From NCBI GenBank assembly GCA_029582155.1, contig CM055897.1, positions 1,574,501 through 1,638,500 of the forward strand: DNA of 64,000 nucleotides, given 5' to 3'. The stretch is from Panopea generosa. Its lineage: Eukaryota > Mollusca > Bivalvia > Adapedonta > Hiatellidae. Position numbers and translations under genes: made by a program. The notes under the pieces were generated by a model. That model was not told the origin of the DNA and searched no databases. It saw only the letters and a program-made list of their open reading frames with translations. This document shows positions 13,401 to 44,900 of the stretch, in pieces (within the stretch, counting starts at the first letter, position 1; every line of letters begins with the position of its first letter).

Positions 13401-16400
13401 GATTAGATATTTCTATCTTACCCGAGATAAAAATTTTGCTCTGTGACATTGGAACCATCTAGATTACATACAGGTTTATTCCCATATTGTACAAAACATT
13501 TTATACCCCATTCTAAAAGAATTTATGAAAAGAGTGAAGAAAAATTAAACTCCTTTTAAATAAAGAAACAGCAAGTTCAGAGTCATGAGAGCAGCAGCCG
13601 AAGGAATTTGCAGATATTTGGATTTTCTCAACGTATGATCATCATGCAGAACATTTTGCGGGTTGTTTGTTTTTATCATTTAAATTCTTCTAAATCTAGT
13701 TTCTTTTTTTTAATCATCATCTTTAATTTTGAACTGTACAACATAAAAGTTATTGGATCCAATAAACTTCTATATATTGTATGGTCACATGGTAACATCT
13801 TGGGTAGGTGATTGGCTATACAATTACAGGTATAGAATAATATATTTTCTTTCTCATTTTAATTTCTATTGCAGAATTGTGTACTTGTGATGAAACTGAA
13901 TTTGTACAACTCGAAGGCCACACGGGTAAGATATTGTACAATGTGTGTAGATTTATCTTTGACAGCATATTTTTGAATATCAAATAATTTTATCATGATG
14001 CAGTTAGTTATTTGCTTTTATTGGTTTGACAGGTTTGACTAGAGAAAGGAACATTGCCTGTTTTGTCTGAACTTTCCATTAATGTTAACAGTGTTAATGT
14101 GTACAATTGAAGTTCAAGGACAGTACCCCATACTCAATTCATCTGTTATTTTGCTCTGTGGAAACATGTGCCATAGTTCTGTCCATGTATTTTATGTTTC
14201 TGTAAATGATGGTTAACTTAGACACAAAAAATCATTTCTTACTAAAATAAAACTTTAAAATCATATTTAACATGTGCATGCTATTGCATTGTGGTAAGGT
14301 AAAAGCTAGAATACATTTCATAAATAAATATTCTCAATAAATGTTTTAGAGCCACAATAGCGCCAAATATACTGGTACATCAATTTGAATAAATTTATTT
14401 TAATTCACTCCATGTGCTATACCAATGTTTATCACTGTTTATGTTTCACTTTCTTAAATGTATCATTATATTTGATCAGATAAGTGTAGATATTGAATAT
14501 TCAGTTCAGGAGTACCTGTCCATTCATCATTTCAGATACAAAAAATATGGCGAGGATATTATGTACGTAAATATGTGTTCAACTACTACAGTAGAAAGAG
14601 ATATCTGGAAGCACTTGTTATAAAGAATGAAATTATCAGGTATGTCTTGTCTTCTGTTGCTCAATTTAAAAGGAATCTCCTATTAATAAAGATATTTTTC
14701 TTTTGGATTGACAATTTGAAATCATCTACAGTTTAAAAATCACTTCAGCATATACTACGTTTTACCATTATAACAGTTTTGTAGGGAGAAATCTGATTGT
14801 TTCATGTTGCTGGCATGATTATCATTCTGATCTTTACAGATCATAAAGTGTTATGAATATGATATCTTAAAAGGAGTATATCAGGATTAAACACTATATA
14901 AATACTGTTTGACAACTTACTTGTCGTCATTCAGACTTTCTAAGATTCAACAATTCTTACTACATGTAAACTTGTATAATGGATCAAAGTAAAATCAAAA
15001 TAAAATCACTTGACTCATTTAATACCTCACAAAATATGTTGCCATTTCAAGTGGAAAATCTATTTTAGCCTAACCTAGGTGCGTATCCCAAGTTAGTAAG
15101 GCTCTTTTCAATTTGTTAGTTTGGCATGCTAAATAGATATCTTTTTGGCAATACAGGGTCAGTGAATATATATAGGTATGGTATATTAGAAAAAAAGAGA
15201 AAAATGTTTTCAGCTTATTTCAAAATTTTGAATAATCCTGATATTTTCCCTTAAACTCCATAAACTAATGGAGCAAATGTTTTTAAAGAAGAAAGATACA
15301 ATGAGCAGTATCAAATAAAACTACTCTCCCTGGTATGAATGAGTAATTTGCAACAATATACTTACTCTGCTTTGTTTACACCACATTTTCTCGAGAGTTT
15401 TACCATTATTTAACTGTTTAACACATTTAAAATGTCTTGCATGGACAGAAATGAGCTGGACGAGTATGCAGAACAACAGGAGCAGAACCGACGGCGACAG
15501 AGAGAGGCCAAGGACAAGGAGGTCCAGGAGAAACTGGCCAGGAAATATCACTACCTGATCAGTACACATGTCATACCAGGAGTTTTTAACTCTCCCTTCA
15601 TGCCGTAAGTGTCAAACTGGGAGTATTTTATTCTCTCTTCATGCAGTAAGTGTCATACTGGAATTATTTTATTCTCCCTTCATGCAGTAAGTGTCATACT
15701 GGGATTATTTTATACTCCCTTCATGCAGTAAGTGTCATACTGGAAGTATTTTATTCTCCCTTCATGCAGTAAGTGTCATACTGGGAGTATTTTATTCTCC
15801 CTTCATGCAGTAAGTGTCATACTGGAAGTATTTTATTCTCCCTTCATGCAGTAAGTGTCATACTGGGAGTATTTTATACTCCCTTCATGCAGTAAGTGTC
15901 ATACTGGGAGTATTTTATACTCCCTTCATGCAGTAAGTGTCATACTGGAAGTATTATATTCTCCCTTCATGCAGTTAGTGTCATACTGGGAGTATTTTAT
16001 ACTCCCTTCATGCAGTAAGTGTCATACTGGGAGTATTTTATACTCCCTTCATGCAGTAAGTGTCATACTGGGAGTATTTTATTCTCCCTTCATGCAGTAA
16101 GTGTCATACTGGGAGTATTTTATTCTCCCTTCATGCAGTAAGTGTCATACAGGGAGTATTTTATACTCCCTTCATGCAGTAAGTGTCATACTGGGAGTAT
16201 TATACTCTCCCTTCATGCAGTAAGTGTCATACTGGGAGTGTTTTATTTATATTTGGTTCCTGTTTTAAGTACATATTTAAATACTTAAAAAACTTAAATC
16301 AAATAAAAGCATCCAGGTGATCATGATTTTTGACTGGCTCCAGAAGAATTACATTTGGTTTTATTGACATTAAGTATTTAAGTAAAATGCTCTCTCCACC

Positions 16401-19400
16401 AGATATAACACATGAATGGTATAAAGTGTGCTCTTTCCACCAGATATAACACATGAATGGTATAAAGTGTGCTCTCTTCACCAGATATAACACATGAATG
16501 GTATATAGTGTGCTCTCTCCACCAGATATAACACATGAATAGTATATAGTGTGCTCTCTTCACCAAATATAACACATGAATGGTATACAGTGTGCTCTCT
16601 TTACCAGATATAACACATGGATGGTATATAGTGTGCTCTCTTCACCAGATATAACACATGAATGGTATACAGTGTGCTCTCTTCACCAGATATAATACAT
16701 GAATGGTATATAGTGTGTTTCTCCACCAAATATAACACATGATTGATATATATACTATAGTGTGCTCTCTCCACCAGGTATCCCAGTGAGATGGAATATG
16801 CTCTTGCCAGTGCGAAGCCCCTGCCACATAAGAAGACGAGGGTGACAGACAATCCGTATGACCCAGCATGGAAAAGTTATGACCATGAGCTGCCCAAACC
16901 CCAACAGCTGCCACCCATAGCAAACAGACCCCAGGTATGTCCAAGAAAGGGCTTAAGTGTTAGCCTTCAAAATAAAAAACCCACATAACAACCAGCATAA
17001 TCAAAGCTAGATAAAACACATGTTGTCATGTAGAAACTTACAATTATAATAAATAATAGTATACTATTCAAACAAAATAGAAACGTTAAGAAAATTTGCA
17101 GGGGCAAAAAACAACAACTTGGATTTGCCATGTTTTCCTCCTCAAGTTATTATTAAATTGTGTTTGTCTCAAATCTGGCTGGAACCATTGCAATATATAT
17201 ATTTAAGTACTGAGTTGTGTAGCCTTCTATCAGTTCTATATAAGTATGTGTCTTTAGTTTCTACTTATTTAATTTAGCTTAATTGTAAAGGAAGCTCAAA
17301 GCTTATAAATATGAACTGCTCTGGAGTCTGCTTCATGAGTAGAATCAGTGCTAAGTATTGTTTCTTGAGAGACCTCAGCTCAAGCTGGGGATTGAACCTA
17401 CAACCTCTGGCATGAGCGACCAATACTATATTCTCTACTCTACTGTCTCACTTGAGAATGTGTCTTTGAGCACGACATTCTTTGTTAGACTTCTTCAACA
17501 GTTTTTGATGACAACATGGTGAAAATGTATGAAATTGGAATAGAATAGAATTCTAAAGCTTCATATAATATCCAATACTGGTATTTGAACATGACAAATT
17601 AAACATGATGTCAACACAGATCATTACGGCAAAATACAAATAGTTTTGATGCCGCAAAGAAATGGCTTGTAGTAATTAAACCATGATGAGAGATGATAAT
17701 CATGCTCAAGAATATGTTACCTATTGTTTATATGCAGGGTCCATTGATATTCATGTTACGAGTAGATTATCTTTGACGGTCCATTCATATACATGTAACA
17801 AGTAGTTTATCTTTGCAGGGTCCATTCATATATATGTAACAAAAAGTTTATCCTTGCAGGGTCCATTCATATGCATGTAACAAGTAGATTATCTTCATAT
17901 GCATCATATATATGCATGTAACAAGTAGTTTATCTTTGCAGGGTCCATTCGTACACATGTAACAAGTAGGTTGTCTTTGCAGGGTCCATTCATACACATG
18001 TAACAAGTAGATTATTTTTGCAGGGTCCATTCCGAGATCCATCTGATGTACAGAAACAGCGCTACAAGACCTTCCAGCCATCACTACGTGTGGCAACATC
18101 TTTTACGTCTCTGGAACAGGCTCGTGAAAAGATGAAATCGGAAGAGTGGGTAACAAGACTCAATGATAATATGTAAGTTATATTTTTGTGTGTTATATTC
18201 AAATTTCTCTCATTTTAATCTTCATAGCCAGGCCTGGTTAGCTCAGTCGGTAACATGTCTGACTATCAATCCAGGGGTCGCGTGATAGAATTGCTTCCCA
18301 GCCACAGTGTTTGTGACGATTGATATTCGACATTGTGCCTCAAAGTTATCAGTTATTTGTGGAGATAGGTGTGTTTAAGTACTAGTTAACTTTCCAGGAT
18401 CCAAGAAAAGAGTGGTTAGGTTAACTGATTGTCTGTTAGCCCTTGACAGCATAAAATGATGCTTAACATCCAAACAAACAAATAAACCAATTTTCATTGT
18501 TAATTTTTACCATGTTGCAATACAACATTTATTTTTCCTTCTAGAAAATAAACAGACATAAAAAACTCATATTGTATTGAAGGTGTATTCTTACCCTTTT
18601 AAAGTCAATGATCAAAGGCCTCAAAGGCCTGAGGGAAGGCTCGCTGCTTGTGTTAATTTGAAAATGTAGGTTCGGGAAATTGGAAAACTTAGTTAGATTT
18701 CTGATATGTTAAGTAAGAAGGCAATTCATTGGGATTTAGAAAAGAATGTGGTGTGTTTAATATTTCTTTTGTGTATCTGTATAAATAATCTCCTGCATAC
18801 GATACATAGTCCATATCAATACTTTTCCAACAGTACCTATCAAACAATTTAAATAATGCATTTGCAAATGAGTCATCTGAACTCTTAACTTGTCCAACTC
18901 CTTAAGCAAGAATTTCAACGATTCAGCTCAATTTTAATATCTCTAGTTCATTAGTTATGATTTATGGATAACGAAACGCATTCAGCACATAATGTTCTTG
19001 ATTGTCCGAGAATATACGACACATATCCCTAACTCTTTGTCCAGAACAAAACAAACATGACCTACTTATAGATTTAAGTGTATATTAACTTTAGTTATGT
19101 TCGATTCTCATAATGCTTTCAATCAATAATATAGATTATCAATTAATAGCATGTAAACGGTTTTGCGTGACCTAGATTTAATCAATCTAAAAAATACAAC
19201 ACAACCAACATAATGGTTGGATGATCTAATTAACAGTTAAATATGTTTGGATAAACTAATTAGCAACGAAAATTGAGTAGCAATACAACAGTATATGATA
19301 AGGTTAAATATATATATGAAATTATGAATGTATATTTAAATCAATTACTTTGAGTGGTGGATCTGTTCATCAACATCAAAACATGACAGATTGGTGCGTT

Positions 19401-22400
19401 TTTCTGTCAACAACAAAAATAGCCCCCAACTTAATTTCTTTATTTTACTATCAAAATCAAAGAGGACATTCCGCTGTGAATGATATTACACTAACAATCA
19501 CTATTTACTCAAACTACGAGTTATTATATCGAAAACATGTCAATATTTCATCCCGTTAATTATTACACCTGATTACAGTCGAATGGTGTAAGAGATTATA
19601 GCCTCCCCCCCCACCCCCCTCCCCACACACACACACACCAGATGACGTCACTATGCATAGTAGTAAATGCATAAAACAATTTTTTTATCAATGAAAATTG
19701 CAGCGTTTTTTTAGTGCACAGCAATATAAGTTTATTCTTCCGCATTTCAATGGAAATTGTATGCTTCTCGTATCGTATCTTTGAATTCAAATACAGATAA
19801 ATATCCGCAATAAATAAAAAACTTTGAATATTTTTTTGTATAATACGTCATCTGCTATGGCAAATACGTGTTGAAACTTGTGAAATACTTTATTGGTTGG
19901 ATGAATATGGCGGTTCCTGTCATATGTTACCTTTATAACAGATTGCTAGGGCTGCACGACAGCTAAGGGAGTCAGAGCTTTGCTCGCCTTCCAAAAACAG
20001 AGAGATCAAATAAAAAACAATGTCACTTAATATAATTGTGTCTGCATCCCCCAGTACAACCAGTCATTTTAAAGGTGACTCATCCAATATGACTTTTGTA
20101 TCCTGTGTACACGTCCATATTTATTTTATATGTACAGATATAACCTTATATTACAAATGAAATAAGACCCTCTATTGATGTGATAGGTTTTGATCAGCAT
20201 GGCTGATATAGTTAATTGTAAGGTCTATTTTAAATGTTTTAATCAGGTCTTCATCCTATTTATTCTTCTTTATTCCCCAGTTTTGTACCTTTCACAATAC
20301 GGGAGAACAAGTACGAGCCACTCCTTCACACAACCTCGTCATTTGGGCATCCACAATATGGCACAAAGTTTTTTCGTCATGAGACTGTGGACAAACACGT
20401 TACAAGTCTGGTATGTATTTAAGAAAATTTGTTTTGCACCTCTTTAATTCTACAAATACATCAGAATTTGATAGTATGGTGTTTTGCAACCAGTTAAGAA
20501 AGAGTTGTAATAAGTAATGAAAAATTAATGAGTAATAAAAAATAATTGAGTAATTAATGAGTAATGAAAAAATAATTAGTAATTTATGAGTAATGAAAAA
20601 AAAATGAGTCACGAGAAATTAATGAGTAATAAATGAGTAAAGAAAAAATAATTATTAATTAATAAATAATAAAAAATTAATTAGTAATTGAGAAATGAAA
20701 AATTGATGAGTAATAAAAAATTAACTAGTAATTAATGAGTAATGAAAAAATAATAAGTAATTAATGAGAAATTAAAAATTAATGAGTAAATAATGAGCAT
20801 TGAAAAATTAATTAGTAATTAATGAGTAATGAAAAAGTTAATGAGTAATTAAAAATTAACTAGTAATTAAAGAGTAATGGAAAATTAATGAGTAATGAAA
20901 AATTAATGAGTAATGAAAAGTTAGTTAGAGAACTATAATAAAATGTTCTTCACAGGGTAGTTAGTAAAATATTAATTTGATTAGACGCTTATTCCAATAT
21001 TTCGACCCAATAGGTCCTTATCAAGGATAAAATACAATTAGACACTACAGCTCATTGATTTGAATAATCCTGACAACTCTGATAAAGACAAGCCAATTGA
21101 TATATGCATTTTGACTACTGTCACACAAATTGTGCAGCTGTTCTTTCTGTACTTGACAAGTTATGGTGGTACGGGAATCTATGTGATTAAATATGTTGAT
21201 AACTAATAAACTAAATGGATGTAACATTAAAAACACATGGATGCTGACCCAATTGCAGTTATGATACTAACGTAACGTTGCGGGACATAGTGCAATTAGC
21301 CATTTGATATTACGTTGGTGTCGTGTTTCTGATATATAGAAATAACTTTCATACATTTCATCTGTGTCAGGATTATTCCAATCAACGAGATGTCTAATCA
21401 TATTTTATCCTTCATAAAGATCCATTTGGGTCAAAATATTTTCATTAGAGTGTAACTAATTTATTTGAAAAATTAGCTGTTTTATCAACCTGGCCAGCTC
21501 ATTATTTTGTGTTGGTAAACACTTGCCAAGGAGCATAAATTTTATTGTTTTTATATACACTTGCCAAGGAGCATAAATTTTATTGTGTTGATATACACTT
21601 GAGCATAAATTATATTCCTAAAAATGAAATGTTCATACTTTTTTGTAATTGTGTACACATGTGTGATTCCTTATATGCTAACTGGACAGTCTATCAGGAG
21701 AACTACAACTTGTACAAAAAAATCTATCTAAAAATCTACAAATGACATACTGATCCATACATGTTTTCTATCAGCCTGACTGGCAGATGGACACTCCTAC
21801 ATTTGGTTAGTTAGATAATTGTTGTACGCTTTTGTTTGTAGTTCACATTGGAGTCAAAATTGCATCAGCATTTTCAACTTTAATTGAGTGATTTATTATA
21901 AACAACTGTAGAAAAGGACTTTTTTACATAAATTAATATTTTACTCTCAAGCAAATAATTCATATATTAATATCTGAACTTGTGGTCAAACTTTTAAATT
22001 CATCTAAATATATCATACATAATTTTCCAATATATTCAACCATAAATATCTAATTACTAAGTGAATAAAAATATTTTCTTTTAAATTTTCTGATGTATCA
22101 CAAATTCACAATACAAGATCAGTCTGTATGTGCTCATCATTAGAAATACATGTATATTGTATCACAAACTCACAATGCAAGATCTGTAAGTGGTCAGTAT
22201 AAGAAGTACATGTATATTGTATCACAAACTCACAATACAAGATCTGTAAATGGTCAGTATTAGAAGTTCATGTATATTGTATCACAAACTCACAATACAA
22301 GATCTGTAGGTGGTCATCATTAGAAGTACATGTATATTGTGTATCACAAACTCACAATACAAAAGTTTTCACATGTTCTTAGTGGATTTCACTTCTAGAA

Positions 22401-25400
22401 AACTTATTTTAGCTAAATTCTTCTAAAATTTTCAGCACTCTTCATTTGAAAGTACAAAGAGACATCCGGTATAATTTATACGCATTACCTTATCTTGGAA
22501 CAACGTGTGATTCTTACTGTATTTAACAAGGCGGCTGGGATATTGTTGTTGCAATTTATCAAAAAGCATAAATTCATATTATTATATGTTGCATGAAAAA
22601 GGTTAATTTCTGCTTATGGTTGGATATAAAAAGCTTGTTTCAGCATTAAGTTCAGATAACTTTGGGTTTTGGTGAACTTGCCATTCATCACTTTGGTGTG
22701 CATCATCAACCACTTGGAAATATTTATTTGACAAAGAGTCCTCTGTTGGGAATATTATATAAGTAACAATGCCTATTTTTAACTATTTTTTTCAAACTTT
22801 CGGCTTATGAGGGGTTATCCAGAAGTTTTGGACAAATCTCATAATATGAACATGACATGTCGGATATATTTGGAGTTTTAAAAGTATTATATTTAATCTA
22901 ACTGCAAACTGTATGCAAAGTATGAAGAAAATATATATTCAAATAAAACAGCAACATGTATTTCAAACATGTTATGTACACCTATCTGCCACAGGCCAGA
23001 TTTACGTTACGTCGTTGCAATGTCAATTTATTTTACAAGTAATTTTCCAACTCTTATTCGTCGCTCCACTTATACTCTTTTAGCAATTGGAGAACCCTGC
23101 GAGCATTAAAATGCAAGCTATTTATTCTTAAGTATCATATGCACTGTATTGTAACTTATACTTGATTTGCAGCATAGTTCATGAATTGTATTACAGCAAT
23201 CCTTATTGAGGCACTTTTTACAACATTGGCGTGACTTTGTGTGATTTTGACACAGGACACCACACCTGTTATCATCCATTATTGTTTTTCATTCCTCATT
23301 GTACCGTTTGTGTCATTTGTAGACTACGAAATGCACTACAAATAAATTTCTCAGAGCTTTACTATGCATATTTGTCATCTGAATCAGTGTTTTGCTAATA
23401 TTGACACAAACTGTATTGCTACTCCTTGATTCACCTTTTCATCAGATGTGCTATTTGCATAGGAATGAGTCTACCTTTTCAATATAAGTTTATTTAAACT
23501 CCTAACACCTGTGCGCAATGCTGGAATGACACTGTCATGCAGACATTGATGATGTGTCCTCAATAATATATATGATTTACTGCGAGTTTTACAGGAAAAT
23601 GATTGTTATTTTTCACATATTTATCTGTTTAATAGTTCAAAAGTTTGAGCTGCGGCACTAATCATATATGTATGTTGCTATGGATACCATAACATTATTA
23701 CTGACATAAGAAATTTATATACTAAAACACCATACATTGATGACAAATACATCAGTACTGAAGTTCTGAAAATTATAGCAATGTACTTTCATAAATATGG
23801 ATTTTATTAAATTTGTCCATGAACTTCTGGATAACCCCTTGTGTACCTTAAAATTCATCAGGAAAATAGCAAAAAATAATATACATCAAGTCACAAATGG
23901 ATGTGACTATATTATTTTTTGCTATTTTCCTGGTGAAGGCATAAGCCAAAAATTTAAGAGAAGAAAAAAAAAAAAGAGTTAAAAACAGGCATTATTACTT
24001 TGAAATATCTTGGTATTAGTAATTGCATTCTTTATATTGCATCACAATCATTTTTGTTGAAAGTATGTGTATGCCTCCCACATTTGAAGAATGGTGAAAT
24101 GGCATTTAAATGATGAGTAAATTCTGAAAGCGGTGACTTGTTTAATTTACATTTTCTGTGTAGCTATATAATTATAAAATACAGGGCAAGTTCTACAATT
24201 GTCAACATCAGTCAAATTTTTCAGAAGTTATGGCCCTTTTTCAACTCCTTTTTTTGTGTAAAATTTACTTACATATAGCAGGGGCGTCCATGGCACAACT
24301 GTGACCTATCTAAATTTATAAACACTGTATAAATATTGATGAGTCAAAGACTGTGAGTGATATGTTTTGGCAAATACAACTAGGTTTCAACAATACATAA
24401 TCTCCATCTTTTCTTAAGTTTTAAAGGCAGTGTCATGGGAAAAATTGAACTGGTAAAAGATTTCTAAAACTAGAAATATCAATGAAGGTGATGAATAACC
24501 CCAGATGGTGACCTGACACAGTTATTGCACCCTTTTGCTGCCTGCTTTGACACAGTGAACCAATAAGAGTAAACAATCACTTTTTAAGAAGTGTCAATGA
24601 AGAACACTTGCCGAGAAACAGTGACAACAAAAAAAATGTCTAAAAAATTCAAAGGGCCATAGCTCATTGAAAAATTATTCGGGTGCAACATGCTGACGAT
24701 ATGCACAACTAGGCTTGGTACCAGTTACCCATGTGAAGTTTCACTGAATTCAGGCCAATGGTTGCTGAGAAATAATGACCACAAAAAATATGTCTGAAAA
24801 ATTCAAAGGGCCATAACTCATTGAAAAATTTATCAGACGCAACATGCTGATGATATGCACAACTACTCTTGTTACCAGTCACCCATGTGAAACTTCATTG
24901 AATTCAGGCCAATGGTTGCTGAGAATTAGTGACCACAAAAAATGTCTGAAAAATTGAAAGTGCCATAACTCATTGAAAAATTATTCTCGCACAACATGCC
25001 GACAATATGCACATCTAGGCTTGGTACCAGTCACCCTTGTGAAGTTTCATTGAATGTCGGCCACATATGGAAAAAATATGTATGAAAAATTCAAAGGGCC
25101 ACAACTCATTGAAAAATTATTCTTGCGCAACATGCCAACAACATGCACTATAAAGTTTGGTACCAGTCACCCTTGTGAAGTTTCAATGAATTCTGACCAA
25201 TGGTTGCTGAGAAATAGCGATCACAAAAATTGTCCACAGACAGAAAAAAATATGTATGAAAAATTCAAAGGGCCACAACTTATTGAAAAATTATTCATGC
25301 ACAGCATGCTGACGATATGCACAACTAGTCTTGTTACCAGTCACTCATGTGGAGTTTCATTGAATTCAGGCCAATGGTTGTTGAGAAATTGTGACCACAA

Positions 25401-27655: not shown

Positions 27656-27689
27656 ATATTACTGAACATGTCAACAACTGATAGAGAGG

Positions 27690-30281: not shown

Positions 30282-30510
30282 TTAACCCTTTACTTCATAT
30301 AGACACCTTCGGACACCTCTAATATTGACGTCTTTGGACACCTCTAATATAGAAGGCTTTTGAATTATTGGGTGAATTATGTTTATATTAACTGACAGAG
30401 TGGAAAACAGTGCAGGAAGTGTTCAGATTGCTCATTACGAGCAATCTGTACTCTTCCTGCACTGTTTTCAAAGGCTTTATGTGATTGGTATCTATGGAGT
30501 AAAGGGTTAA
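30282..30510. mobile_element. 229-bp foldback element with a near-perfect central hairpin
   Basis: The ends TTAACCCTTTACTTCATA (30282-30299) and TATGGAGTAAAGGGTTAA (30493-30510) are inverted copies with one mismatch. Inside, 30403-30433 and 30439-30469 are inverted 31-bp arms with 29 matches around a 5-nt loop. GACACCTCTAATAT is repeated near 30312 and 30338. Confidence 0.8.
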
Positions 30511-31610
30511 AAGGAAAAAAATAATACATTTTCAAAAAGCTTTGTGTACTATTTTATGTTATTTTTTACAGTTACCCAGCAATAATAAATAGATACGAGG
30601 GAAACATTGATTTTTATGGAGCTCTCGTCCAACTAGTCACTATGATGTTTGAAGAACGTTTTAAATGGTTCTTATTTGATATTGCTGAATGGAATTGTGT
30701 AACTTCTTTATTTGTATATTTGCATGCCAAGGTCAAGATGAACTGCTCAAAATTACCCGTGAGGGTGTGTAGCAGAATAAAGAGATATTTAATGACAACC
30801 TTTTTTGAATCCATGTAGCTGCCAGTTGGATGCCTTGTTAATTGTTTCAAAGATAAACTGACATTTTTTGTATATTTTGTATTTAACATGTATATATGTA
30901 CAGGTTGTCTATCCCATATGTGTAAATACATCATGTTCTGGAAAACTTTTTTCTTTTTTGTTATATCTTATTTTCCCCAAAAGAATTTACTTTTGAAAAA
31001 GTAGTTAACTTAAAAAGTGTAATTGCCAAATTATGTAGTACATTGTTTTTTAGAATATGTAAATAATTCCCATTGAACAAAATGATTTATGAAGGGAAGT
31101 GGAAAATTAGATTTGATCATCTTCGACACTTTTATTTCTAAACGACAAATGTCTTGTTAAGTTCTTTGAGTAAAATTGTAACAGTATTCTGCTAAAATTT
31201 CTGATTAGTTGATTCATATAGACTGCCTCGGTGAATTCCATCATGTTTCAGATAATTATTATTCAGATGTTTATTTCTGTATTCATTGTTTTATTCGATA
31301 TTTTCTTTTTCAAAAATATCTTGGACAAGCTACCATTAACTGCAATGATTTTCTTCACATAAATTTTAATTTTATCTCAAACATAACTGTCATTTCAGCT
31401 TATCAGATAAAACTTCCAGATTCCACCTTTCTCCTGCACAATGTGTCAATTTAGAAAAGCAAACATTTGAGATGATCAAGACCAATGGAAAATAAGCAAC
31501 CATGTCCAAATAAATGCCCCAAAGTGACGTGTTATGGACACAACATTAAAAAATCGTAGTTTAGATATCTATGAATGAATAATCAAAATTAACTTTGCAA
31601 GAATTTAAAG

Positions 31611-31800
31611 CGGGGCGGTAGTCTAATGGATAGAGTGTTGGCCATTCACGCCAGAGATTGTGGGTTTGATCCCCCAGTCGACCCGATGCCTCTCATAAAA
31701 CAACACTCAGTACTGATTCTACCCAGGAAGCGGACTCAAGAGCGGTTAATATAAGCTCTGAGCTTTCATTGCAATCAAGCTAAAACAAATTAATATAAAC
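31611..31800 (+). mobile_element. tRNA-derived SINE, family B, best copy
   Basis: The head GTAGTCTAATGGATAGAGTG (box A) and GTGGGTTTGATCCCCC (box B) is tRNA-like. The body has CTCAGTACTGATTCTACCCA and ends in AAGCTAAAACAAATT. Three reverse-orientation copies lie at 17270, 48780 and 61825. Confidence 0.7.
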
Positions 31801-32107
31801 TAAACTAAGAATTCAAATCAAGACCAGTGATACTTAGGGCTGGAATACCATAATATTCTTGTCATCGCACAAGAAAATTTCCTATTTTCAGGGCAATATC
31901 CATCTCCACCATGATTAGAGAACATCAGAAGTATGTAAAACTGACAATTCAATTTTATTGGATGTGTTTATATGATTTTTAAACATTAAGATAGCACCTC
32001 TTCATATATAATCCATGACTGACGAATTAATATATACTTGATTTAAAACAATCGAAAAGCTTACGGACAAATACAAAATAATAAAGCACTTTAATTGGAG
32101 TTTCATC

Positions 32108-32226
32108 TTTATTGCATAATTAATCTTAGTGATTTCTTTACATGTACACTAAAATTGATACATACATGGACTAAATTTACCATTACAACCAGAAGAGCTG
32201 ATAAGTGAATTACAGTTTTTTTTATT
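32108..32226 (-). terminator. IFT43: Candidate poly(A) signals of IFT43
   Basis: Minus-strand AATAAA occurs at 32226-32221 and 32113-32108, about 650-770 nt beyond the stop. Which is used is unknown. Confidence 0.35.
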
Positions 32227-32876
32227 AAATACAGATCAAGCTTAGAACGTGTTATTTCTGAACACAATGTAAGAGAAGAACAAACACCTGGATTCAAAAC
32301 ATCATTCACGATATCACTACATATAAGTGTTAGAATGTTGGAGCCACTTAGGTCCGCTGCATAGCAATGTAAAATGAACATGCTTATAGATCAATTACTT
32401 TAGCGAAAGTTAAATGACATTACAGTTTTTGTAATTGTGAAAAGTTACATAAATTGTGGAACAGACATAGAATTCTCTGCTTTTTCATTGTGGTTGAACA
32501 GACCTGATTGGGCAGATATCAGAGACTTGGATAGACTTAAATAGTGAACAGTAACAAATAATGTAGGTCTGGTATTTTCTTCCAGATTAATTTTCAGTGT
32601 GTTGTTTCACACAGCTATATTTGTCAAATTTCAGAAAGGGTTACCTTCACCTGTCTATACCAAAGCAGGGTACCAGTAGTTGCAATCAGAAACTACACAA
32701 ACATCCTCTGATCATGATCAGCTACACAAGCATCCACTGATTCTGATCAGGATGCACAACCATTGGTTCTGATCCAACTGCAGTGAATTAACTCCTCATG
32801 TCTCACTTCCTCTTAAACAAATCAAAATAAATAAATAAAAAATCAGTTGAGTTATCACATAAGTAAGAGGATATGA

Positions 32877-32999
32877 TCAGACAGTTTGTTCCATTGGTTC
32901 ACTCCCTGTAGTGCTTGCTTCTTCATTTTTCTCCCACTGTGTCAGCAACTCAGATGTGACTTCTGTAAACAATCTATCCCAGTCCCATGGCTTGTCTTC
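32877..32999 (-). CDS. IFT43: IFT43 exon 9 (stop)
   Basis: Acceptor TTATTCCAG; residues 175-214, with KPWDWDRLFTEVTSELLTQW, then a Glu/Thr/Ser tail and TGA at 32879-32877. Confidence 0.95.
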   Translation of the reverse strand, partial: EDKPWDWDRLFTEVTSELLTQWEKNEEASTTGSEPMEQTV

Positions 33000-35900
33000 C
33001 TGGAATAAAAAATGTTATCAACAAATTAATACTTACAATCAATTTTCATTCTCAGAAAAAATAACACTATCAAGCACAATGATCTGTCAAAAAAACACAC
33101 CAAGTTTGAAATGCATACTTTCTATGATAAATTTTTATTTCAGGTTATATATGGCATGTCCAGTTTTATTGATGGAGGAACTACCGTCCTTTATGCAAGT
33201 AAATGGCAAACTTTTTCACATGAAGTTTTTGGGTGAGTGAGACTCAAACCTACAACCTTAGTGGTGAGCAGTAAGTGATCATTAGACGCGTTGCCTTGGA
33301 CCACTTGGCTATGGACAACCCTACTCTACAGTACATAGAACCAGACATAATTAAGTCACTGATGTAATGGAATCAGTTTCTTGAAAAACATTGTTAGTAC
33401 CAATCAATCAAAACTGTTTAAATTCCATAATTGGAATATGTATAAACCCTTGGATATATCCAGCACAAAGGAACATGTAGTTCTAAAGCAGACTGGCCCT
33501 GTGTTGAGATGAAGTGAAATGTTGGGATAATACGACTCAACATATTTTAATAATGAAATACTTTAGAATGAGCTGCTTCCATTGAACGCTATTAGGTATG
33601 TGTGAAATTATTGAAAGTGATGTTAAAAAGAGCACAAGCACCACATTATGATAAATAAAAGATAACCCTGTCCCAACATATAAAACAAATACCAGTACAT
33701 AAATGTGACTTCCGATAGATACTAGGTAGAACAGCTGACCCATCTCTACATACTGCATAAAACATCTTCATCACAGAACATGTATAATGTTAATAATTAT
33801 AAATATGTATAATGTTAATAATTATAAATATTGTATAATGTTAATAATTATAAATAAGTATAATGTTTATAATTATAAATATGTATAATGTTATTTATTA
33901 TAAATAATGTATAATGTTAATAATTATAAATAAGTATAATGTTTATAATTATAAATATGTATAATGTTAATAATTATAAATATTGTATAGGAAACTAAAA
34001 ATTGTTGTTGTTTTTTGGGAAAACCATATGTCTCCCCTTCATACAATTATGAAAATTATTTTAAATGTTATTGTTAATACACGAAACTTGTTTTTCTGAG
34101 AAAAGAATTTTATTGCGTATACATCAACTTAACATTCCATTCCCCACTTAATATGTCAATATTTTCTATTTAAAACAACATCATTGAAACATTTACTGAA
34201 ACGTTCACCATGTACAATTGTGTTGATACAGATGGTAGATAAGAAGGACTTACTTCTACAAGGTCAGCCTCGGTTGATAATGACTTTGTTAACAGTTTCA
34301 GATCTATTTCATTATCCTGCAACAAAGAAATGTATAAACACATAATTATATTGCACTGTGCTCACAAAACATCACAGTTATCAACAATCTGTACCAAAGA
34401 AAGTATGTTATAACATCAATGCAACCAGAAGAAACTGGAACCATTAACAGTCTTAATTTCTATGTTAGTTTGGTTTGGTTTTGCCCCTTGCACTCTGGAC
34501 AACATCTAGGTTGAAACTTCTGATTTGCTCTGTTAGGTTTTGTATCACTGCCAATAATATTGAAAATAAATATATTGTAACTTTAACAAACAGATTTCCT
34601 GAACACTAGTATATAGAGAATATTTGTTTGTTTTGGTGAAAGATCCAACACTGTAGTATATAGAGAATATTTGTTTGTTTTGGTGAAAGATCCAACACTG
34701 TAGTATATAGAGAATATTTGTTTGTTTTACTAACCCTAATATATATAGAGAATATTTGTTTGTTTTGGTGAAAGATCCAACACTGTAGTATATAGAGAAT
34801 ATTTGTTTGTTTTGGTGAAAGATCCAACACTGTAGTATATAGAGAATATTTGTTTGTTTTGGTGAAAGATCCAACACTGTAGTATATAGAGAATATTAGT
34901 TTGTTTTGGTGAAAGATCCAACATTGTAGTATATAGAGAATATTTGTTTGTTTTGGTGAAAGATCCAACACTGTAGTATATAGAGAATATTTGTTTGTTT
35001 TGGTGAAAGATCGAATTATATTTCATCAAGTGACCATCACAAGTCATATTCCCGCTCATGAGAATACTATTTTTGGTGATCACAAGATGAAATATCATAT
35101 GATCTAACATCAAAACAAACAATTCCTGTTGTTTTTTTATTCAATTACATAATTTTTTGTTTATTTTTACCTCAATTTTTTTTAAATAATATTTTTTATA
35201 AATAATCTACTGAGAAATCTCTATCAATCATCAAAAAGCATAACATAAACAAATGTAATTTATTAATGTGTCATTCATTCTTTACACATTTGCAGCACTG
35301 TTATTTACTCCATCCTATATTGCCTACACCACAGTCAATCATAATAAGTATACTTTAGTTTGGTATTATTCTCCGTATTCTATGATTTTATTTTTGGAAC
35401 AACAATGGATGAATCCACAATTTCAGTGTGAGGCAGAGATCTAAAGGTGAGACACCACCTTAACCATCTCAACAATGGATGAACCCACAATCTCAGAAGT
35501 GGCAGTGTGAGGCAGAGATCTGTAGGTGAGACACCACCTTAGCCATCTCAACAATGGACGAACCCACCATCTCAGAGGTGGCAGTGTAAGGCAAATCTAA
35601 AGGTGAGACACCAGCTTAGCCATCTCAACAATGGATGAACCCACAATCTCAGAGACGGCAGTGTGAGGCAGAGATCTATAGGTGAGACACCACCTTAGCC
35701 ATCTCAACAATCGATGAACCCTATATCTCAGAGGTGGCAGTGTGAGGCAGAGATCTATAGATGAGACACAGATCTATAGGTGAGACACCACCTTAGCCAT
35801 CTCAACAATGGATGAACCCATAATCTCAGAGGTGACAGTGTGAGGCAGAGATCTATAGGTGAGACACCACCTTAGCCATCTCAACAATGGATGAACCCAC

Positions 35901-38900
35901 AATCTCAGAGGTGGCAGTGTCAGGCAGAGATCTATAGGTGAGACACCAGCTTAGCCATCTCAACAATGGATAAACCCACAATCTCAGAGGTGGCAGTGTG
36001 AGGCAGAGATCTAAAGGTGAGACACCACCTTAGCCATCTCAACAATGGATGAACCCACAATCTCAGAGGTGGCAGTGTGATGCATAGAATCTATAGGTGA
36101 GACACCACCTTAGCCATCTCAACAATGGATAAACTCACAATCTCAGAGGTGGCAGTGTGAGGCAGAGATCTATAGGTGAGACACCTCCTTAGCCATCTCA
36201 ACAATGGATGAACCCACAATCTCAGAGGTGGCAGTGTGAGGCAGAGATCTATAGGTGAGATACCTCCTTAGCCATCTCAACAATCGATGAACCCAGAATC
36301 TCAGAGGTGGCAGTGTGAGGCAGAGATCTATAGGTGAGACACCACCATAGGCATCTCAACAGTGGATAAACCCACAATCTCAGAGGTGGCAGTGTAAGGC
36401 AGAGATCTATAGGTGATACACCACCTTAGCCATCTCAACAATGGATGAACACACAATCTCAGAGGTGGCAGTGTGAGGCAGAGATCTATAGGTGAGATAC
36501 CTTCTTAGCCATCTCAACAATGGATGAACCCACAATCTCAGAGGTGGCAGTGTTAGGCAGAGATCTATAGGTGAGACACCATCTTAACCATCTCAACAAT
36601 GGATGAACCCACAATCTCAGAGGTGGCAGTGTGAGGCAGAGATCTATAGGTGAGATACCTTCTTAGCCATCTCAACAATGGATGAACCCACAATCTCAGA
36701 GGTGGCAGTGTTAGGCAGAGATCTATAGGTGAGACACCATCTTAACCATCTCAACAATGGATGAACACACAATCTCAGAGGTGGCAGTGTGAGGCAGAGA
36801 TCTATAGGTGAGACATCCCCTTAGCCATCTCAACATTCGATGAACCCAGAATCTCAGAGGTGGCATTGTGAGGCAGAGATCTATAGGTGAGACACCACCT
36901 GAGCCATCTCAACAATGGATGAACCCACAATCTCAGAGGTGGCAGAGTAAGGCAGAGATCTATAGGTGAGACACCACCTGAGCCATCTCAACAATGGATA
37001 AACCCACAATCTCAGAGGTGGCAGTGTGAGGCAGAGATCTATAGGTGAGACACCACCTGAGCTATCTCAACAATTGATGAACCCACAATCTCAGAGGTGG
37101 CAGTGTGAGGCAGAGATCTATAGGTGAGATACCTCCTTAGCCATCTCAACAATGGATGAACCCACAATCTCAGAAGTGGCAGTGTTAGGCAGAGATCTAT
37201 AGGTGAGACACCATCTTAACCATCTCAACAATGGATGAACCCACAATCTCAGAGTTGGCAGTGTAAGGAAGAGATCTATAGGTGAGACATCCCCTTAGCC
37301 ATCTCAACAATGGATGAACCCAGAATCTCAGATGTGGTAGTATGAGGCAGAGACCTATAGGTGAGACACCTCCTTAGCCATCTCAACAATGGATGAACAC
37401 ACAATCTCAGAGGTGGCAGTGTGAGGCAGAGATCTATAGGTGAGACACCATCTTAACCATCTCAACAATGGATGAACCCACAATCTCAGAGTTGGCAGTG
37501 TAAGGCAGAGATCTATAGGTGAGACATCCCCTTAGCCATCTCAACAATGGATGAACCCAGAATCACAGATGTGGTAGTATGAGGCAGAGACCTATAGGTG
37601 AGACACCACCTGAGCCATCTCAACAATCGATACACCCACAATCTCAGAAGTGGCAGTGTAAGGCAGAGATCTAAAGGTGAGACACCACCTAAGCCATCTC
37701 AACAATGGATGAACCCACAATCTCAGAGGTGGCAGTGTAAGGCAGAGATCTATAGATGAGACACCACCTGAGCCATCTCAACAATCGATACACCCACAAT
37801 CTCAGAGGTGGCAGTGTGAGGCAGAGATTTATAGGTGAGACACCGCATTGGCCATTTCAACAATCGATGAACCCTAAATCTCAGAAGTGGCAGTGTGAGG
37901 CAGAGATCTATAGGTGAGACACCACCTTGGCCATTTCAACAATTGATGAACCCACAATCAAACAGGTGTCAGTGTGAGGCAGAGATCTAAAGGTGAGACA
38001 CCACCTTGGCCAGTTCAACAATCGATGAACCCACAATCTCAGAGGTGGCAGTGTGAGGCAGAGATCTATATGTGAGACACCACCTTAACCATCTCAACAA
38101 TGGATGAACACACAATCTCAGAGGTGGCAGTGTTAGGCAGAGATCTATAGGTGAGACACCACCTTGGCCATTTCAACAATCGATGAACCCACAATCTCAG
38201 AGGTGGCAGTGTGAGGCATAGATCTATAGGTGAGACACCACCTTGGCCATTTCAACAATCGGTGAACCCACAAGCTAAGAGGTGTCAGTGTGAGGCAGAG
38301 ATCTATAGGTGAGACACCACCTTGGCCCGTTCAACAATTGATGAACCCACAATCTAAGAGGTGGCAGTGTGAGGCAGAGATCTGTAGATTAGACACCACC
38401 TTAACCATCTCAACAATGGATGAACACACAATCTCAGAAGTCACAGTGTGAGGCAGAGATCTATAGATGAGACACCATCTTAACCATCTCAACCATGGAT
38501 GAACACACAATCTCAGAGGTGGCAGTGTGAGGCAGAGATCTATAGGTGAGGCACCACCTTAGCCATCTCAACAATGGATAAACCCATAATCTCAGAAGTG
38601 ACAGTGTGAAGGAGAGATTTGTAGGTGAGACACCACCTGAGACATCTCAACAATCTATGAACCCACAATCTCAGACGTGGCAGTGTCAAACAGAGATCTA
38701 AAGGTGAGACACCACCTTGGCCATCTCAACAATGGATGAACCCACAATCTCAGAGGTAACAGTGTGAGGCAGAGATCTATAGGTGAGACACCACCTTAGC
38801 CATCTCAACAATTGATGAACCCACAATCTCAGAAATGGCAGTGTGAGGCAGAGATCTATAGGTGAGACACCTCCTTACTCATCTCAACAATGGACGAACC

Positions 38901-41900
38901 CACAATCTCAGAGGTGGCATTGCGAGGCAGAGATCTACAGGTGAGACACCACCTTAGCCATCTCAAAAATGGATGAACCAACAATCTCAGAGGTGGCAGT
39001 GTGAGGCAGAGATCTATAGGTGAGACATCTCCTTACTCATCTCAACAATGGATGAACCCACAATCTCAGAGGTGGCAGTGCAAGGCAGAGATCTACAGGT
39101 GAGACACAACCTTAGCCATCTCAACAATAGATGAACCCACAATCTCAGAGGTGGCAGGATGAACCCACAATCTCAGAGGTTGCAGAGTGAAGCAGTGATC
39201 TTAAGGTGAGACACCATCTTAGCCATCTCAACAATTGATGAACCCACAATCTCAGAAGTGGCAGTGTGAGGCAGAGATCTATAGGTGAGACACCACCTTA
39301 GCCATCTCAACAATGGACGAACCCACAATCTCAGAGGTTGCAGAGTGAAGCAGAGATCTATAGGTGAGACACCTCCTTAGCCATCTAAACAATGGATGAA
39401 CCCACAATCTCAAAAGTGGCAGTGTGAGGCAGAGATCTATAGATGAGACACCACCTTAGCCATCTCAACAATGGATGAACCCACAATCTCAGAGGTGGCA
39501 GTGTGAGGCAGAGATCTATAGGTGAGACACAATCTTAGCCATCTCAACAATTGATGAACCCACAATCTCAGAGGTGGCAGTGTGAGGCAGAGATCTATAG
39601 GTGAGACACCACCTTACTCATCTCAACAATGGATGAACCCACATTCTCAGAGGTAGCAGTGTGAGGCAGAGATCTATAGGTGAGACACCACCTGAGACAC
39701 CTCAACAATTGACGAAAGTGGACTACATGAGAATTATCATTACAGTAACTTGTATCAAGTACAATCGCAAATCTTATTTTTACAGTAAGTTTTAAGTTAA
39801 ATTTATATACAATTAACTGACCAGAGTAAGAAATGCAGCTTGTTTAAGTAGGTCATTGTCCAACTCTCTGTAGGTGGCCACTCTATTTACTGCAACACTG
39901 TAACGACAAAATGTAAATACTTGAATTAGTGTTAAGATATGCATTTGTCTGAGCATGTCTTATGGTTTGTGTGTTGAAATTGACTAATGAACTATGTATA
40001 TATGGCGTAAGTGTGTACATATACACACATAATTGAGTGCATGGTCCAGTGGTAGACCATCAACCACATGGTCATAGGTTTGATCTGCCACTACAGCTTT
40101 GTGTGGTGTCCTTGAGCAAGACACTCTCTGCATATGCTTAGTACTGGTTCTACCAAGGAAGACTCACATGTGATTTGTCCAAGTTGTAAGAACTTGTGTC
40201 ACAATCAAAGTAAAATAAAATAACGCCTAAGTTTGTGTCAACAAAACATAATTTGGTAAATAAGCTGTTACTTTGTAGCATACATCACTGTTTGTAAGTT
40301 AACATGCCAGTACACACATTGCAAACATGTATAATGTAGTTACATTTTAATATATTCAGCTGGTTGCGATTATCTGCAAGTAATCAGCAAAGGTCTTAGG
40401 ATATTTGGTTTCTAGTATGAGAACACATGGATTATGGCCCTGGAAGGTTGCGTGTCAAATTCCTTCAAGCATTCATAATCAATGGAGATACTGTCAAAGA
40501 TCACTTCCCTGAATGGCATGGTCAACATTTAAAGTATGTATTATGTAAATATGTACTTACTTTGGGGCATATGCCACTGTTTGTGTAATGTCATGTACTT
40601 ACTTTGGAGCATATGCCACTGTTTGTGTAATGTTATGTACTTACCGGTACTTTGGAGTATATGCCACTGTTTGTGTAATATCATGTACTTACTTTGGAAC
40701 ATATATATGCCACTGTTCGTGTAATGTCATGTACTTACTTTGGAGCATATATATGCCACTGTTTGTGTAATGCCATGTACTTACTTTGGAGCATATATTT
40801 GTCACTGTTTACATGTATGTTCCATCATGTACTTACTTTGGAGCATATGCCAATGTTTGTGTAATGTCATGAACTTACTTTGGAGCATATGCCATTATTT
40901 GTGTAGTGGCATGTACTTACTTTGGAGCACATATATGTCACTGTTTGTGTAATGTAATGTACTTACTTTACAACATGTGGCACTGTCTAATGTCATGTAC
41001 TTACTTTGGAGCATATTCCACTGTTTGTGTAATGTCATGAACTTACTTTGGAGCATATGCCATTGTTTGTGTAGTGGCATGTACTTACTTTGGAGCACAT
41101 ATATGTCACTGTTTGTGTAATGTCATGTACTTACTTTACAACATATGACACTGTCTAATGTCATGTACTTACTTTGGAGCATATGCAACTGTTTGTGTAA
41201 TGTCACATACTTACTTTATAGCATATGCCACTGTTTGTGTAATGTCATATACTTACTTTGGAGCATATGCCACTGTTTGTGTTATGTCATGTACTTACTT
41301 TATAACATATTCCACTGTTTGTGTAATGTCATGTACTTACTTTGGAGCATATGCCAGTTTGTGTAATGTCATGTACTTACTTTGGAGCCTATGCCACTAT
41401 TTGTGTAATGTCATGTACTTACTTTGGAGCATATACCACTGTTTGTGTAATGTCTTGTACTTACTTTGGAGCATATGCCCCTGTTTATGTAGTGCTATGA
41501 ACTTACTTTGGAACATATGCCACTGTTTGTGTAATGCTATAAACTTACTTTGGAGCATATGCCACTGTTTGTGTTATGCTATGAACTTACTTTGGACCAT
41601 ATGCCATTGTTTGTGTAATGTCTTGTTCTTACTTTGGAGCAAATGCAACTGTTTGTGTAATGCTATGAGCTTACTTTGGAGCATATGCCACTGTTTGTGT
41701 AATGCTATGAACTTACTTTGGAACATATGCCACTGTTTGTGTAATGGCTTGTACTTACTTTGGAGCATATGCCACTGTTTGTGTAATGTCTTGTACTTAC
41801 TTTGGAGCACATGCCACTGTTTGTGTAATGTCTTGTTCTTACTTTGGAGCGTATGCCACTGTTTGTGTAATGTCTTGTACATACTTTGGAGCGTATGCCA

Positions 41901-44900
41901 CTGTTTGTGTAATGTCTTGTACTTACTTTGGAGCGTATGCCACTGTTTGTGTAATGTCTTGTACATACTTTGGAGCGTATGCCACTGTTTGTGTAATGTC
42001 TTGTACTTACTTTGGAGCGTATGCCACTGTTTGTGTAATGGCTTGTACTTACTTTGGAGCATATGCCACTGTTTGTGTAATGTCTTGTATTTACTTTGGA
42101 GCGTATGCCACTGTTTGTGTAATGTCTTGTACATACTTTGATGCATATGCCACTGTTTGTGTAATGTCTTGTACTTACTTTGGAGCACATGCCACTGTTT
42201 GTGTAATGTCTTGTACTTACTTTGGAGCGTATGCCACTGTTTGTGTAATGTCTTGTACATACTTTGGAGCATATGCCACTGTTTGTGTAATGTCTTGTAC
42301 TTACTTTGGAGCATATGCCACTGTTTGTGTAATGTCTTGTACTTACTTTGGAGCATATGCCACTGTTTGTGTAATGTCTTGTACTTACTTTGGAGCGTAT
42401 GCCACTGTTTGTGTAATGTCTTGTACTTACTTTGGAGCGTATGCCACTGTTTGTGTAATGTCTTATACATACTTTGGAGCGTATGCCACTGTTTGTGTAA
42501 TGTCTTGTACTTACTTTGGAGCGTATGCCACTGTTTGTGTAATGTCTTGTACTTACTTTGGAGCGTATGCCACTGTTTGTGTAATGTCTTGTACTTACTT
42601 TGGAGCATATGCCACTGTTTGTGTAATGTCTTGTACTTACTTTGGAGCATATGCCACTGTTTGTGTAATGTCTTGTACTTACTTTGGAGCACATGCCACT
42701 GTTTGTGTAATGGCTTGTACTTACTTTGGAGCGTATGCCATTGTTTGTGTAATGTCTTGTATTTACTTTGGAGCATATGCCACTGTTTGTGTAATGTCTT
42801 GTACTTACTTTGGAGCGTATGCCACTGTTTGTGTAATGTCTTGTACTTACTTTGGAGCGTATGCCACTGTTTGTGTAATGTCTTGTACTTACTTTGGAGC
42901 GTATGCCACTGTTTGTGTAATGTCTTGTACTTACTTTGGAGCGTATGCCACTGTTTGTGTAATGTCTTGTACTTACTTTGGAGCGTATGCCACTGTTTGT
43001 GTAATGTCTTGTACTTACTTTGGAGCATATGCCACTGTTTGTGTAATGTCTTGTACTTACTTTGGAGCATATGCCACTGTTTGTGTAATGTCTTGTACTT
43101 ACTTTGGAGCATATGCCACTGTTTGTGTAATGTCTTGTACTTACTTTGGAGCGTATGCCACTGTTTGTGTAATGTCATCATCCTGCTGTTCCTCCAGGTC
43201 TGGGATTACTGGTATATCTGTGATGTAGAACAAAACGCAAATAACTTAATTTATACAAAGTGGCCATTAAAATGAAAAATAACATCCATAACAAGGTGTA
43301 CTAATATCAATATTACAAAAATATTTTAGCTGCCAATGTCAGATAAGCTTGATGACCCAACCACACACACGCAAAGTTTCATATAAAAAGTGGGTTGATT
43401 TTATAGTATGGACTAGATGGTATGGTAAAGTAACTACCATGCAAGTTTCACAAATATCCAAACAGAAAAACAATGAGATTTTTGCCAATCAGAAGTTCAC
43501 CTTGAGCCATTTATGTAGCAGAGCTTATGAATTTTGTGAAGTAAAATATAACTGTACTAGTAGTAAAAAACCAAGAACTAATAATAATGTTACAGAACTG
43601 TATCTTGTGTTTATAAGTAAAAGGTAGATGTTATGATTAATTGTATTTAATTGTTGGTTTTATGATCTGTTTGTGATGACAGGTTTATAAACCCTCGGGG
43701 AAGCTTACCATTGTCTGAGTCATCATCACCTGACGCCGCACTACGTGGTCTCAATCTCTCACTGAAATAAATATAAAAAGATTTAGTTATTGTTTTTTTA
43801 CAAAAATTGACATTATAGTCATGTCAGACTACTTAACTTTACAACAAAATATGTGTACTTAGATGCATCTCGGACTAGCAAAAACCGACTGAAAACCAAT
43901 CCACGTATTGAACTTATCGATAACAATTGGAAACAAAACAGTGCAATAATTCAGACTCATTCCTTTGTACTTTTATGTCTTTGTTTAGACCTAACAAACT
44001 GGTTAAAGTGAAATATCCTAAAAAAAAAATGTTCTTTTTTTTTAATATAATAATACACAGTTACTAAAATACATATAAATAAGGTGAAACTTTGTTAAAC
44101 CTGGAGAAAAATTAAGTGGGAAAGGTAAAACACAACAGCATTACAAAAGTAATATAAAATTTCAAATGAAATGGATAATGTGCAAATATATCTATTGGGC
44201 CACTCTGTGCATTAAAACAATATCTCCCAAAATTGGGAATATTATGCGAAATTAACCACAAAACATCAATGGGGCACAAAAATATTACAAGGGTTCAGGC
44301 AGGCTAAATTATGACAGGATTGTGGATGACCTAGATAAGATCTGTTAGCTAGTTATCACATGTTATTACAACCACATGGCACACAGGATGTGATGACAAT
44401 GACTCAACTCTTCCACATCATTGCCCCAACCCTGCTGCTGTTGTACAGGTCTTCTGCGGGGTTTATTGCAACGCTCCATTTCAGACTCAATGTCGAGTCC
44501 ATGAAATATGTCATCACTAAAAGGCAATGAATATACATTAAAGCATTATCATTGTCCATACTTTTAGGTTGTTATAAGCCAGTACATTGCCCCGTATATT
44601 GACGTCTGCTCCACATAACATTTGTTACATTTTAATAATATTTGTAATGTACAACATTTCACATTGTTATTTAGAAAAAATTAATGGGAAAACCGAGGGA
44701 TCTTGATAAATTTACATCCATGGCTATGAACATATGAGCAGTAACAACAATTTACCTATGACTGAAGGACTGTTTTAATCTGTTTAACACTTACAAACCA
44801 AGCACTGTGACCAGAGGATAGAACACATTTAGATAGACTTTTATAATACTTTGTAGCTCATCCCTTATATGAATGAAACAAAATTCAAACAGCACACATG

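What the first reader, a model, noticed from the sequence alone, without database searches (positions are those of the whole stretch)
15605..43217. Four splice-junction minisatellites in two neighbouring genes share a 41-42-bp period
Two donor arrays and two acceptor arrays with unrelated sequences all have 41 or 42 bp units, whereas other arrays nearby have 32, 47, 60, 73 and 79 bp. A common mechanism acting at exon edges is suggested; 42 bp is about four helical turns. I know of no named process that does this, so this may be an undescribed mode of minisatellite birth.
Basis: inference. Interest (0 to 1): 0.8.

Follow-up and report, generated by a model that had tools for sequence, protein, structure and literature searches.

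The report
Splice-junction minisatellites ("mirages") in SPATA17/IFT43

Summary
The four arrays are real. Three sit at splice edges of SPATA17 (+) and one at IFT43 (-), with units of 41, 41, 41 and 42 bp. Each repeats a splice site; adjoining exon sequence is clearly repeated in W1 and W4, partly in W3, weakly in W2. This anatomy has a name: "mirages", minisatellite-like duplications of exon-intron boundaries described in lancelet genes.

I sampled the same genome at 109 Pfam-matched exon stretches (218 edges). Ten edges carry such arrays; positions 110-330 bp into the flanks predict 2.9 (ratio 3.5, bootstrap 1.4-8.6, P 8e-4). Coarser tests are weaker or not significant, so an excess at exon edges is likely, not settled.

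The shared period is not general. The ten independent arrays have units of 38, 41, 42, 49, 63, 66, 82, 95, 97 and 108 bp, not different from 64 other arrays (KS P 0.84), with no sign of 10.5-bp phasing.

Best explanation: rare tandem duplications straddling a junction are tolerated because the exon-proximal site keeps splicing; the extra copies become intron and amplify. A post-hoc hint: donor GTs in distal copies show 1 substitution in 129 copies (18 expected).

The parts
14536..14639 (+). SPATA17 exon A (IQ-like, ...IWRGYYVRKYVFNYY...), no TRF array at its edges
   Evidence: splice sites placed; weak IQ match, E 0.058; TRF
15449..15604 (+). SPATA17 exon B, ends ...THVIPGVFNSPFMP
15569..16247 (+). 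W1: donor mirage, 41-bp unit = 36 nt of exon B's 3' edge + GTAAG; 16.6 copies
   Evidence: exon copy 30/36 identical to unit
16388..16777 (+). W2: acceptor array, 41-bp unit containing TGCTCTCTYCACCAG; TRF span 16388-16752 (8.9 copies), then a partial copy with the true acceptor; exon-side similarity weak (14/26)
16778..16934 (+). SPATA17 exon C (YPSEMEYALASAKPL...NRPQ)
17733..18032 (+). W3: acceptor mirage, 41-bp unit containing TCTTTGCAG|GGTCCATTC; 7.3 copies
18024..18172 (+). SPATA17 exon D (GPFRDPSDVQKQRYKTFQPSLRVA...NDNM)
40552..43176 (-). W4: donor mirage, 42-bp unit = about 32 nt of exon e2's 3' edge + about 10 nt of intron (GTAAGTACAA); 62 copies; proximal donor at 43144
   Evidence: exon copy 31/32 identical to unit
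43145..43218 (-). IFT43 exon e2 (DIPVIPDLEEQQDDDITQTVAYAPK)
   Evidence: Pfam IFT43 over cut-off; splice sites
43709..43761 (-). IFT43 exon e1 (RLRPRSAASGDDDSDN)
   Evidence: splice sites; similarity to IFT43 is recalled, not tested
39822..39889 (-). IFT43 exon e3 (VNRVATYRELDNDLLKQAAFLTL); acceptor approximate; no TRF array touches it
   Evidence: found by motif; donor; similarity to IFT43 is recalled
34254..34316 (-). IFT43 exon e4 (DNEIDLKLLTKSLSTEADLVE)
   Evidence: weak Pfam IFT43 match, E 0.0062, below the cut-off; splice sites
32928..32999 (-). IFT43 exon e5 (EDKPWDWDRLFTEVTSELLTQW...), 3' end not determined
   Evidence: Pfam IFT43 over cut-off; acceptor

Best explanation
These are mirage-type minisatellites. 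A tandem duplication (or short slippage event) happened to span an exon-intron junction. Its exon-proximal copy kept the original reading frame and splice site, so mRNA was unchanged; the second copy, with its stretch of former exon and a duplicate splice site, fell into the intron. Freed from coding constraint, the intron-side copies then expanded and contracted by unequal exchange or slippage and were homogenised, while the exon-proximal copy stayed fixed by selection. Shown: anatomy, both kinds of junction, recurrence in unrelated genes of the same genome, and, in the nine donor cases, that moving from the proximal to the second donor would bring in a stop (8) or shift the frame (1). Inferred: the order of events, use of the proximal site in vivo, and the amplification mechanism. 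The 41-42 bp coincidence within this window is most likely chance.
For: Anatomy of four arrays. Gene identity. Ten further junction arrays at exons of the kinesin, SNF2 and myosin families, each with the junction inside the TRF array; conserved coding motifs at the donors show the exon as the source (for example DEAQALKSST, GDDMGLGKTVQ, LVDEESKFPK). Excess over flanking positions: 10 of 218 against 2.9, P 8e-4, ratio 3.5 (1.4-8.6); against 1.5-2.1 expected from the 10-kb regions, P 8e-5 to 4e-6. Period distribution not different from other arrays, KS P 0.84. Reading past the proximal donor meets a stop before the second donor in 8 of 9 donor arrays; the ninth (L071, unit 41) stays open but would shift the frame. 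Named precedent with the same anatomy and, by its authors' RT-PCR, regular splicing in lancelets (PMC3087553 section 16; PMC3902484 one passage).
Against: No transcript data, so use of the proximal site is inferred; random sequence would often contain a stop too. The excess at junctions depends on the control: a histogram of array boundaries is not significant (11 of 654 near bins; P 0.24 against all farther bins, 0.42 against bins at 50-349 bp); fixed offsets from the match end catch only 5-8 of 218, and single control shifts reach up to 6 of 214 among those printed. The ten were judged by eye, the control by rule. A purely neutral, position-blind model does not predict an excess, so tolerance alone may not be the whole story. 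W2's exon-side similarity is weak (14/26) and its TRF span stops short of the acceptor, so it may be an intronic array that merely reached the junction; W3 shares only 9 exon nt.
Confidence: 0.78

Rival explanations
1. A dedicated process at exon edges makes minisatellites of about 41-42 bp (four helical turns).
For: Four of four in the window; 2 of 10 in the sample against 2 of 64 other arrays at 41-42 bp (Fisher P 0.086); all 14 junction arrays together give Rayleigh P 0.064 for 10.5 bp, but this includes the four that prompted the idea.
Against: Eight of ten independent junction arrays have 38, 49, 63, 66, 82, 95, 97 or 108 bp; KS P 0.84 and Mann-Whitney P 0.57 against other arrays; Rayleigh P 0.52 in the independent sample. 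With n 10 the power is low.
Confidence: 0.06
2. Junctions are true mutational hot spots for tandem duplication (for example through transcription- or splicing-linked breaks), whatever the unit length.
For: 3.5-fold excess over flanking positions; two kinesin paralogues (L022, L039) have different arrays at what appears to be the same donor.
Against: The excess rests on ten arrays, and a coarser test is not significant. Lower loss of arrays anchored on an essential exon would look the same.
Confidence: 0.3
3. Chance: the genome is so rich in minisatellites that some will touch junctions.
For: Non-junction arrays of base 20-130 bp cover 7-8% of the sampled 10-kb regions; the boundary histogram is not significant.
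Against: A junction must fall in the terminal copy; that predicts 1.5-2.9 of 218, not 10.
Confidence: 0.12
4. The distal donor copies are functional, for example as a U1-binding array that aids splicing or suppresses premature polyadenylation.
For: In the four of nine donor arrays with 15 or more copies the GT has 1 substitution in 129 copies against 18.2 for random adjacent columns (pooled P 0.004, post hoc); in three of five acceptor arrays the AG has 7 in 25 against 4.5 (P 0.19). U1 suppression of polyadenylation is the subject of PMC3826338 (title and start of abstract in a listing only).
Against: Copies are not independent and the test was chosen after seeing the data; array by array the share of column pairs as conserved as the GT is 0.54, 0.12, 0.05 and 0.51. 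The wider splice window gives combined P 0.048, the first crude version over 13 arrays P 0.54. Selection on the exon copy, spread by gene conversion, would give the same pattern.
Confidence: 0.1

Closest known systems
Lancelet (amphioxus) mirages in Adh3, globin BflGb6/BflGb9, TnC and PGBD5 (PMC3087553, PMC3902484)
   Same: Minisatellite-like tandem repeats that span an exon-intron boundary, at 5' and 3' boundaries, with AG/GT signals in many copies; inner copies homogenised, outermost copies less so (there; here seen for W1).
   Different: Different animal lineage (here inferred bivalve); arrays here up to 62 copies against 3 and 6 units in the two BflGb6 haplotypes (copy numbers of Adh3 not seen); units here 38-108 bp against 10-72 (Adh3), 60 and 108 (PGBD5) and 150-160 bp (globins). 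Frequency is estimated here in a sample of edges. No transcript or polymorphism data here.
Variable internal tandem repeats at exon-intron boundaries in human segmental duplications (PMC2812944, passages)
   Same: Minisatellite expansion at exon-intron edges.
   Different: Those were found through variation between paralogues and can form novel introns or coding repeats; here moving from the proximal to the next donor would break the frame.
[quoted passage not shown] PMC3443670 passages)
   Same: Tandem duplication, in the potato case across an intron-exon boundary, supplies extra splice sites.
   Different: No new intron is shown here; introns appear enlarged, and their age was not tested.

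Membership tests
Mirage (tandem repeats spanning exon-intron boundaries) | Repeat unit contains both exon edge and intron edge | tested here: met
   W1 30/36 and W4 31/32 clear; W3 9 nt then chance-like; W2 weak, 14/26; ten more arrays contain a junction in the sample
Mirage (tandem repeats spanning exon-intron boundaries) | Occurs at both 5' and 3' intron ends | tested here: met
   Window 2 donors, 2 acceptors; sample 7 donors, 3 acceptors
Mirage (tandem repeats spanning exon-intron boundaries) | Many copies keep splice signals | tested here: met
   Donor GT 1 substitution in 129 copies (4 of 9 donor arrays); acceptor AG 7 substitutions in 25 copies (3 of 5 acceptor arrays)
Mirage (tandem repeats spanning exon-intron boundaries) | Inner copies homogenised, boundary copy set apart | tested here: inconclusive
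   W1: exon copy differs from the unit at 6 of 36 positions, distal copies average 3% mismatch; W4's exon copy is not set apart (31/32)
Mirage (tandem repeats spanning exon-intron boundaries) | Does not disturb regular mRNA splicing | not testable with these tools
   No transcripts; frame analysis of nine donor arrays is consistent
Mirage (tandem repeats spanning exon-intron boundaries) | Length instability between alleles or somatic cells | not testable with these tools
   One assembly only
Proposed class of 41-42-bp splice-junction minisatellites | Junction arrays share a 41-42 bp period genome-wide | tested here: not met
   2 of 10 independent junction arrays; KS P 0.84 against 64 other arrays, 49 from the sample and 15 from the window
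[quoted passage not shown]
   No relatives available; the introns' age is unknown

The most novel reading that the evidence does not exclude
Exon-intron junctions in this genome are preferred birthplaces of minisatellites of any unit length (about one edge in twenty), and the amplified donor copies are held intact by selection, either directly, as an array of U1-binding sites, or through gene conversion from the one real junction.
Probability: 0.2. Interest if true: 0.75.

Novelty: new member of a known kind. Interest (0 to 1): 0.45.

Why it matters
[quoted passage not shown] If about 5% of splice edges in another animal genome carry them, they are a broad source of intron growth, length change at splice sites and raw material for intron gain, and a test of whether junctions attract or merely tolerate tandem duplication becomes straightforward in any annotated genome of this kind.

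Tried and rejected
Period hypothesis: tested and not supported in the sample. Helical phasing: no signal, P 0.52, n 10. Younger or longer arrays at junctions: copy identity not different from other arrays (P 0.89); copy number somewhat higher (P 0.06). L058 (42-bp array) and L077 (11-bp-based array) lie near exons but do not include the junction and were not counted. The IFT43 79-bp array ends about 100 bp from exon e3's donor and does not touch it. PDB searches with single exons found nothing. A crude column-conservation script (13 arrays, combined P 0.54) aligned several acceptor arrays badly; wrap-around alignment replaced it for 7 of the 14 arrays, the others having few copies. Paper searches: three held a mollusc word (20 of 40 listed, 11 of 11, 7 of 7); no title or abstract start in these listings tells of such a case.

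Rows dropped: of 393 family matches listed were typed into; left out by hand were 33 UCH, 21 myosin, 6 SNF2 and 3 kinesin matches (count), mostly short fragments, matches with many stops or low in the lists, but not all weak. Of the 330, 109 were examined: 36 in 20 of 183 ten-kb regions and 73 in 60 of 242 small regions, both in random order. Some stretches may share one exon. L050 and L088 look like near-identical copies and both count.
Full report
What is there. Tandem Repeats Finder confirms four arrays with 41, 41, 41 and 42 bp units. Stacked copies show donors at 15605 (+) and 43144 (-) and the acceptor before 18024 (+) inside the exon-proximal copy; for W2 the TRF span stops 25 bp before the acceptor at 16777/16778 and the junction is a further partial copy. 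The + strand gene is SPATA17 (a PDB chain of that name matches the joined exons at E 8e-28). The - strand gene is IFT43 (two exons over the Pfam cut-off, the only two matches at E up to 1 in the genome). W1 repeats 36 nt of exon plus GTAAG; W4 repeats about 32 nt of exon plus about 10 nt of intron; W3 shares 9 exon nt and then little more than chance; W2 shares the acceptor but only 14/26 beyond it.

Where it comes from. From composition and this number of large contigs I infer a bivalve mollusc; no call names it, and the typical bivalve chromosome number is recalled.

It has a name. [quoted passage not shown] both intron ends are affected, units range from 10-72 to 150-160 bp, the authors' RT-PCR and the Adh3 data suggest that regular splicing is not disturbed, and the mechanism is called unclear. 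PMC3902484 (one passage) adds PGBD5 (60 and 108 bp) and troponin C. PMC2812944 (passages) describes minisatellites at human exon-intron boundaries.

Is it more than chance? I located exons by six Pfam family searches, drew regions in random order without looking at repeats, and read 109 exon stretches in 80 regions. Ten of 218 edges carry an array that contains the junction: acceptors L011, L027, L045; donors L022, L024, L039, L062, L071, L072, L087. The expectation for a position to lie in a terminal copy is 1.5-2.1 of 218 from the 10-kb regions, depending on the score threshold (P 8e-5 to 4e-6), and 2.9 from positions 110-330 bp into the flanks (Poisson P 8e-4; ratio 3.5, bootstrap 95% 1.4-8.6). 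Against this: fixed offsets from the match end catch only 5-8 of 218, single control shifts reach up to 6 of 214 among those printed, and a histogram of array boundaries in 50-bp bins shows no significant excess (11 of 654 near bins; P 0.24 and 0.42). The ten were judged by eye, the control by rule. I read this as a likely but not settled excess.

Is the period special? Base units of the ten independent arrays are 38, 41, 42, 49, 63, 66, 82, 95, 97 and 108 bp (L039's 63 alternates with 57, and L011's TRF period 127 is three units of 42). Against 64 other arrays (49 from the sample, 15 from the window): KS P 0.84, Mann-Whitney P 0.57; 41-42 bp in 2 of 10 against 2 of 64 (Fisher P 0.086); Rayleigh test at 10.5 bp P 0.52 (others 0.80). 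Pooling the window's four gives Rayleigh P 0.064, but those four prompted the question. The common period in the window is best taken as coincidence.

How it works. At the donor arrays the conserved coding sequence marks the exon copy as the original (motifs). Reading past the proximal donor meets a stop before the second donor in eight of nine; the ninth (L071, unit 41) stays open to the second donor but would shift the frame. So only the proximal donor should leave the message intact, and the distal copies should behave as intron. This is consistent with neutral tolerance but weak as proof, since random sequence would often contain a stop.

A hint of constraint. With wrap-around alignment, the donor GT in distal copies of the four donor arrays with 15 or more copies (of nine) has 1 substitution in 129 copies, against 18.2 for random adjacent column pairs (pooled P 0.004); array by array the share of pairs as conserved is 0.54, 0.12, 0.05 and 0.51. 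In three of five acceptor arrays the AG has 7 in 25 against 4.5, not significant. The wider splice window gives combined P 0.048 for donors and 0.96 for acceptors. The test is post hoc and copies are related. Direct function of distal donors, or conversion from a single constrained exon copy, could both explain it.

Verdict. Observation confirmed; common period not supported as a rule; the structures belong with mirages, apparently frequent in this genome. Three paper searches with a mollusc word listed no such case, but they cover only open-licence papers and I saw listings only.

Noticed in passing
window 17253-17453: Dispersed repeat, possibly a tRNA-derived SINE by its look (recalled), with 40 further matches at 73-82% identity elsewhere in the genome, a lower bound because only the best candidates were scored.
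   Followed up: no
window 30297-30360; L021 8904-9015, L022 9198-9259, L023 2399-2657, L056 1341-1479: A 25-bp tandem unit like ATATAGACGCCTTTGGACACCTCTA recurs at unrelated places, so it looks like a dispersed minisatellite family, unlike the mirages.
   Followed up: no
L022 4006-4974 and L039 438-679: Two kinesin matches at the same Pfam positions (272-303 and 273-302) carry donor arrays with different units (38 against 57-63 bp); a third such match, L033 (276-302), has no TRF array.
   Followed up: partly
window 3510-4043 (-): Exon of a ciliary microtubule inner protein 6 gene (PF15667, E 4.2e-14), a third cilium-related gene beside SPATA17 and IFT43.
   Followed up: no
window 15605-16777: One SPATA17 intron is mostly arrays: a donor array and an acceptor array with only about 140 bp between them.
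   Followed up: no
L020 5164-5646, L050 138-257, L088 138-257 and window about 18395-18445: Sequence like GTGTGGTTAGGTTAACTGACAGTCTGTTAC recurs, tandemly in the loci, suggesting a dispersed element with an internal repeat.
   Followed up: no
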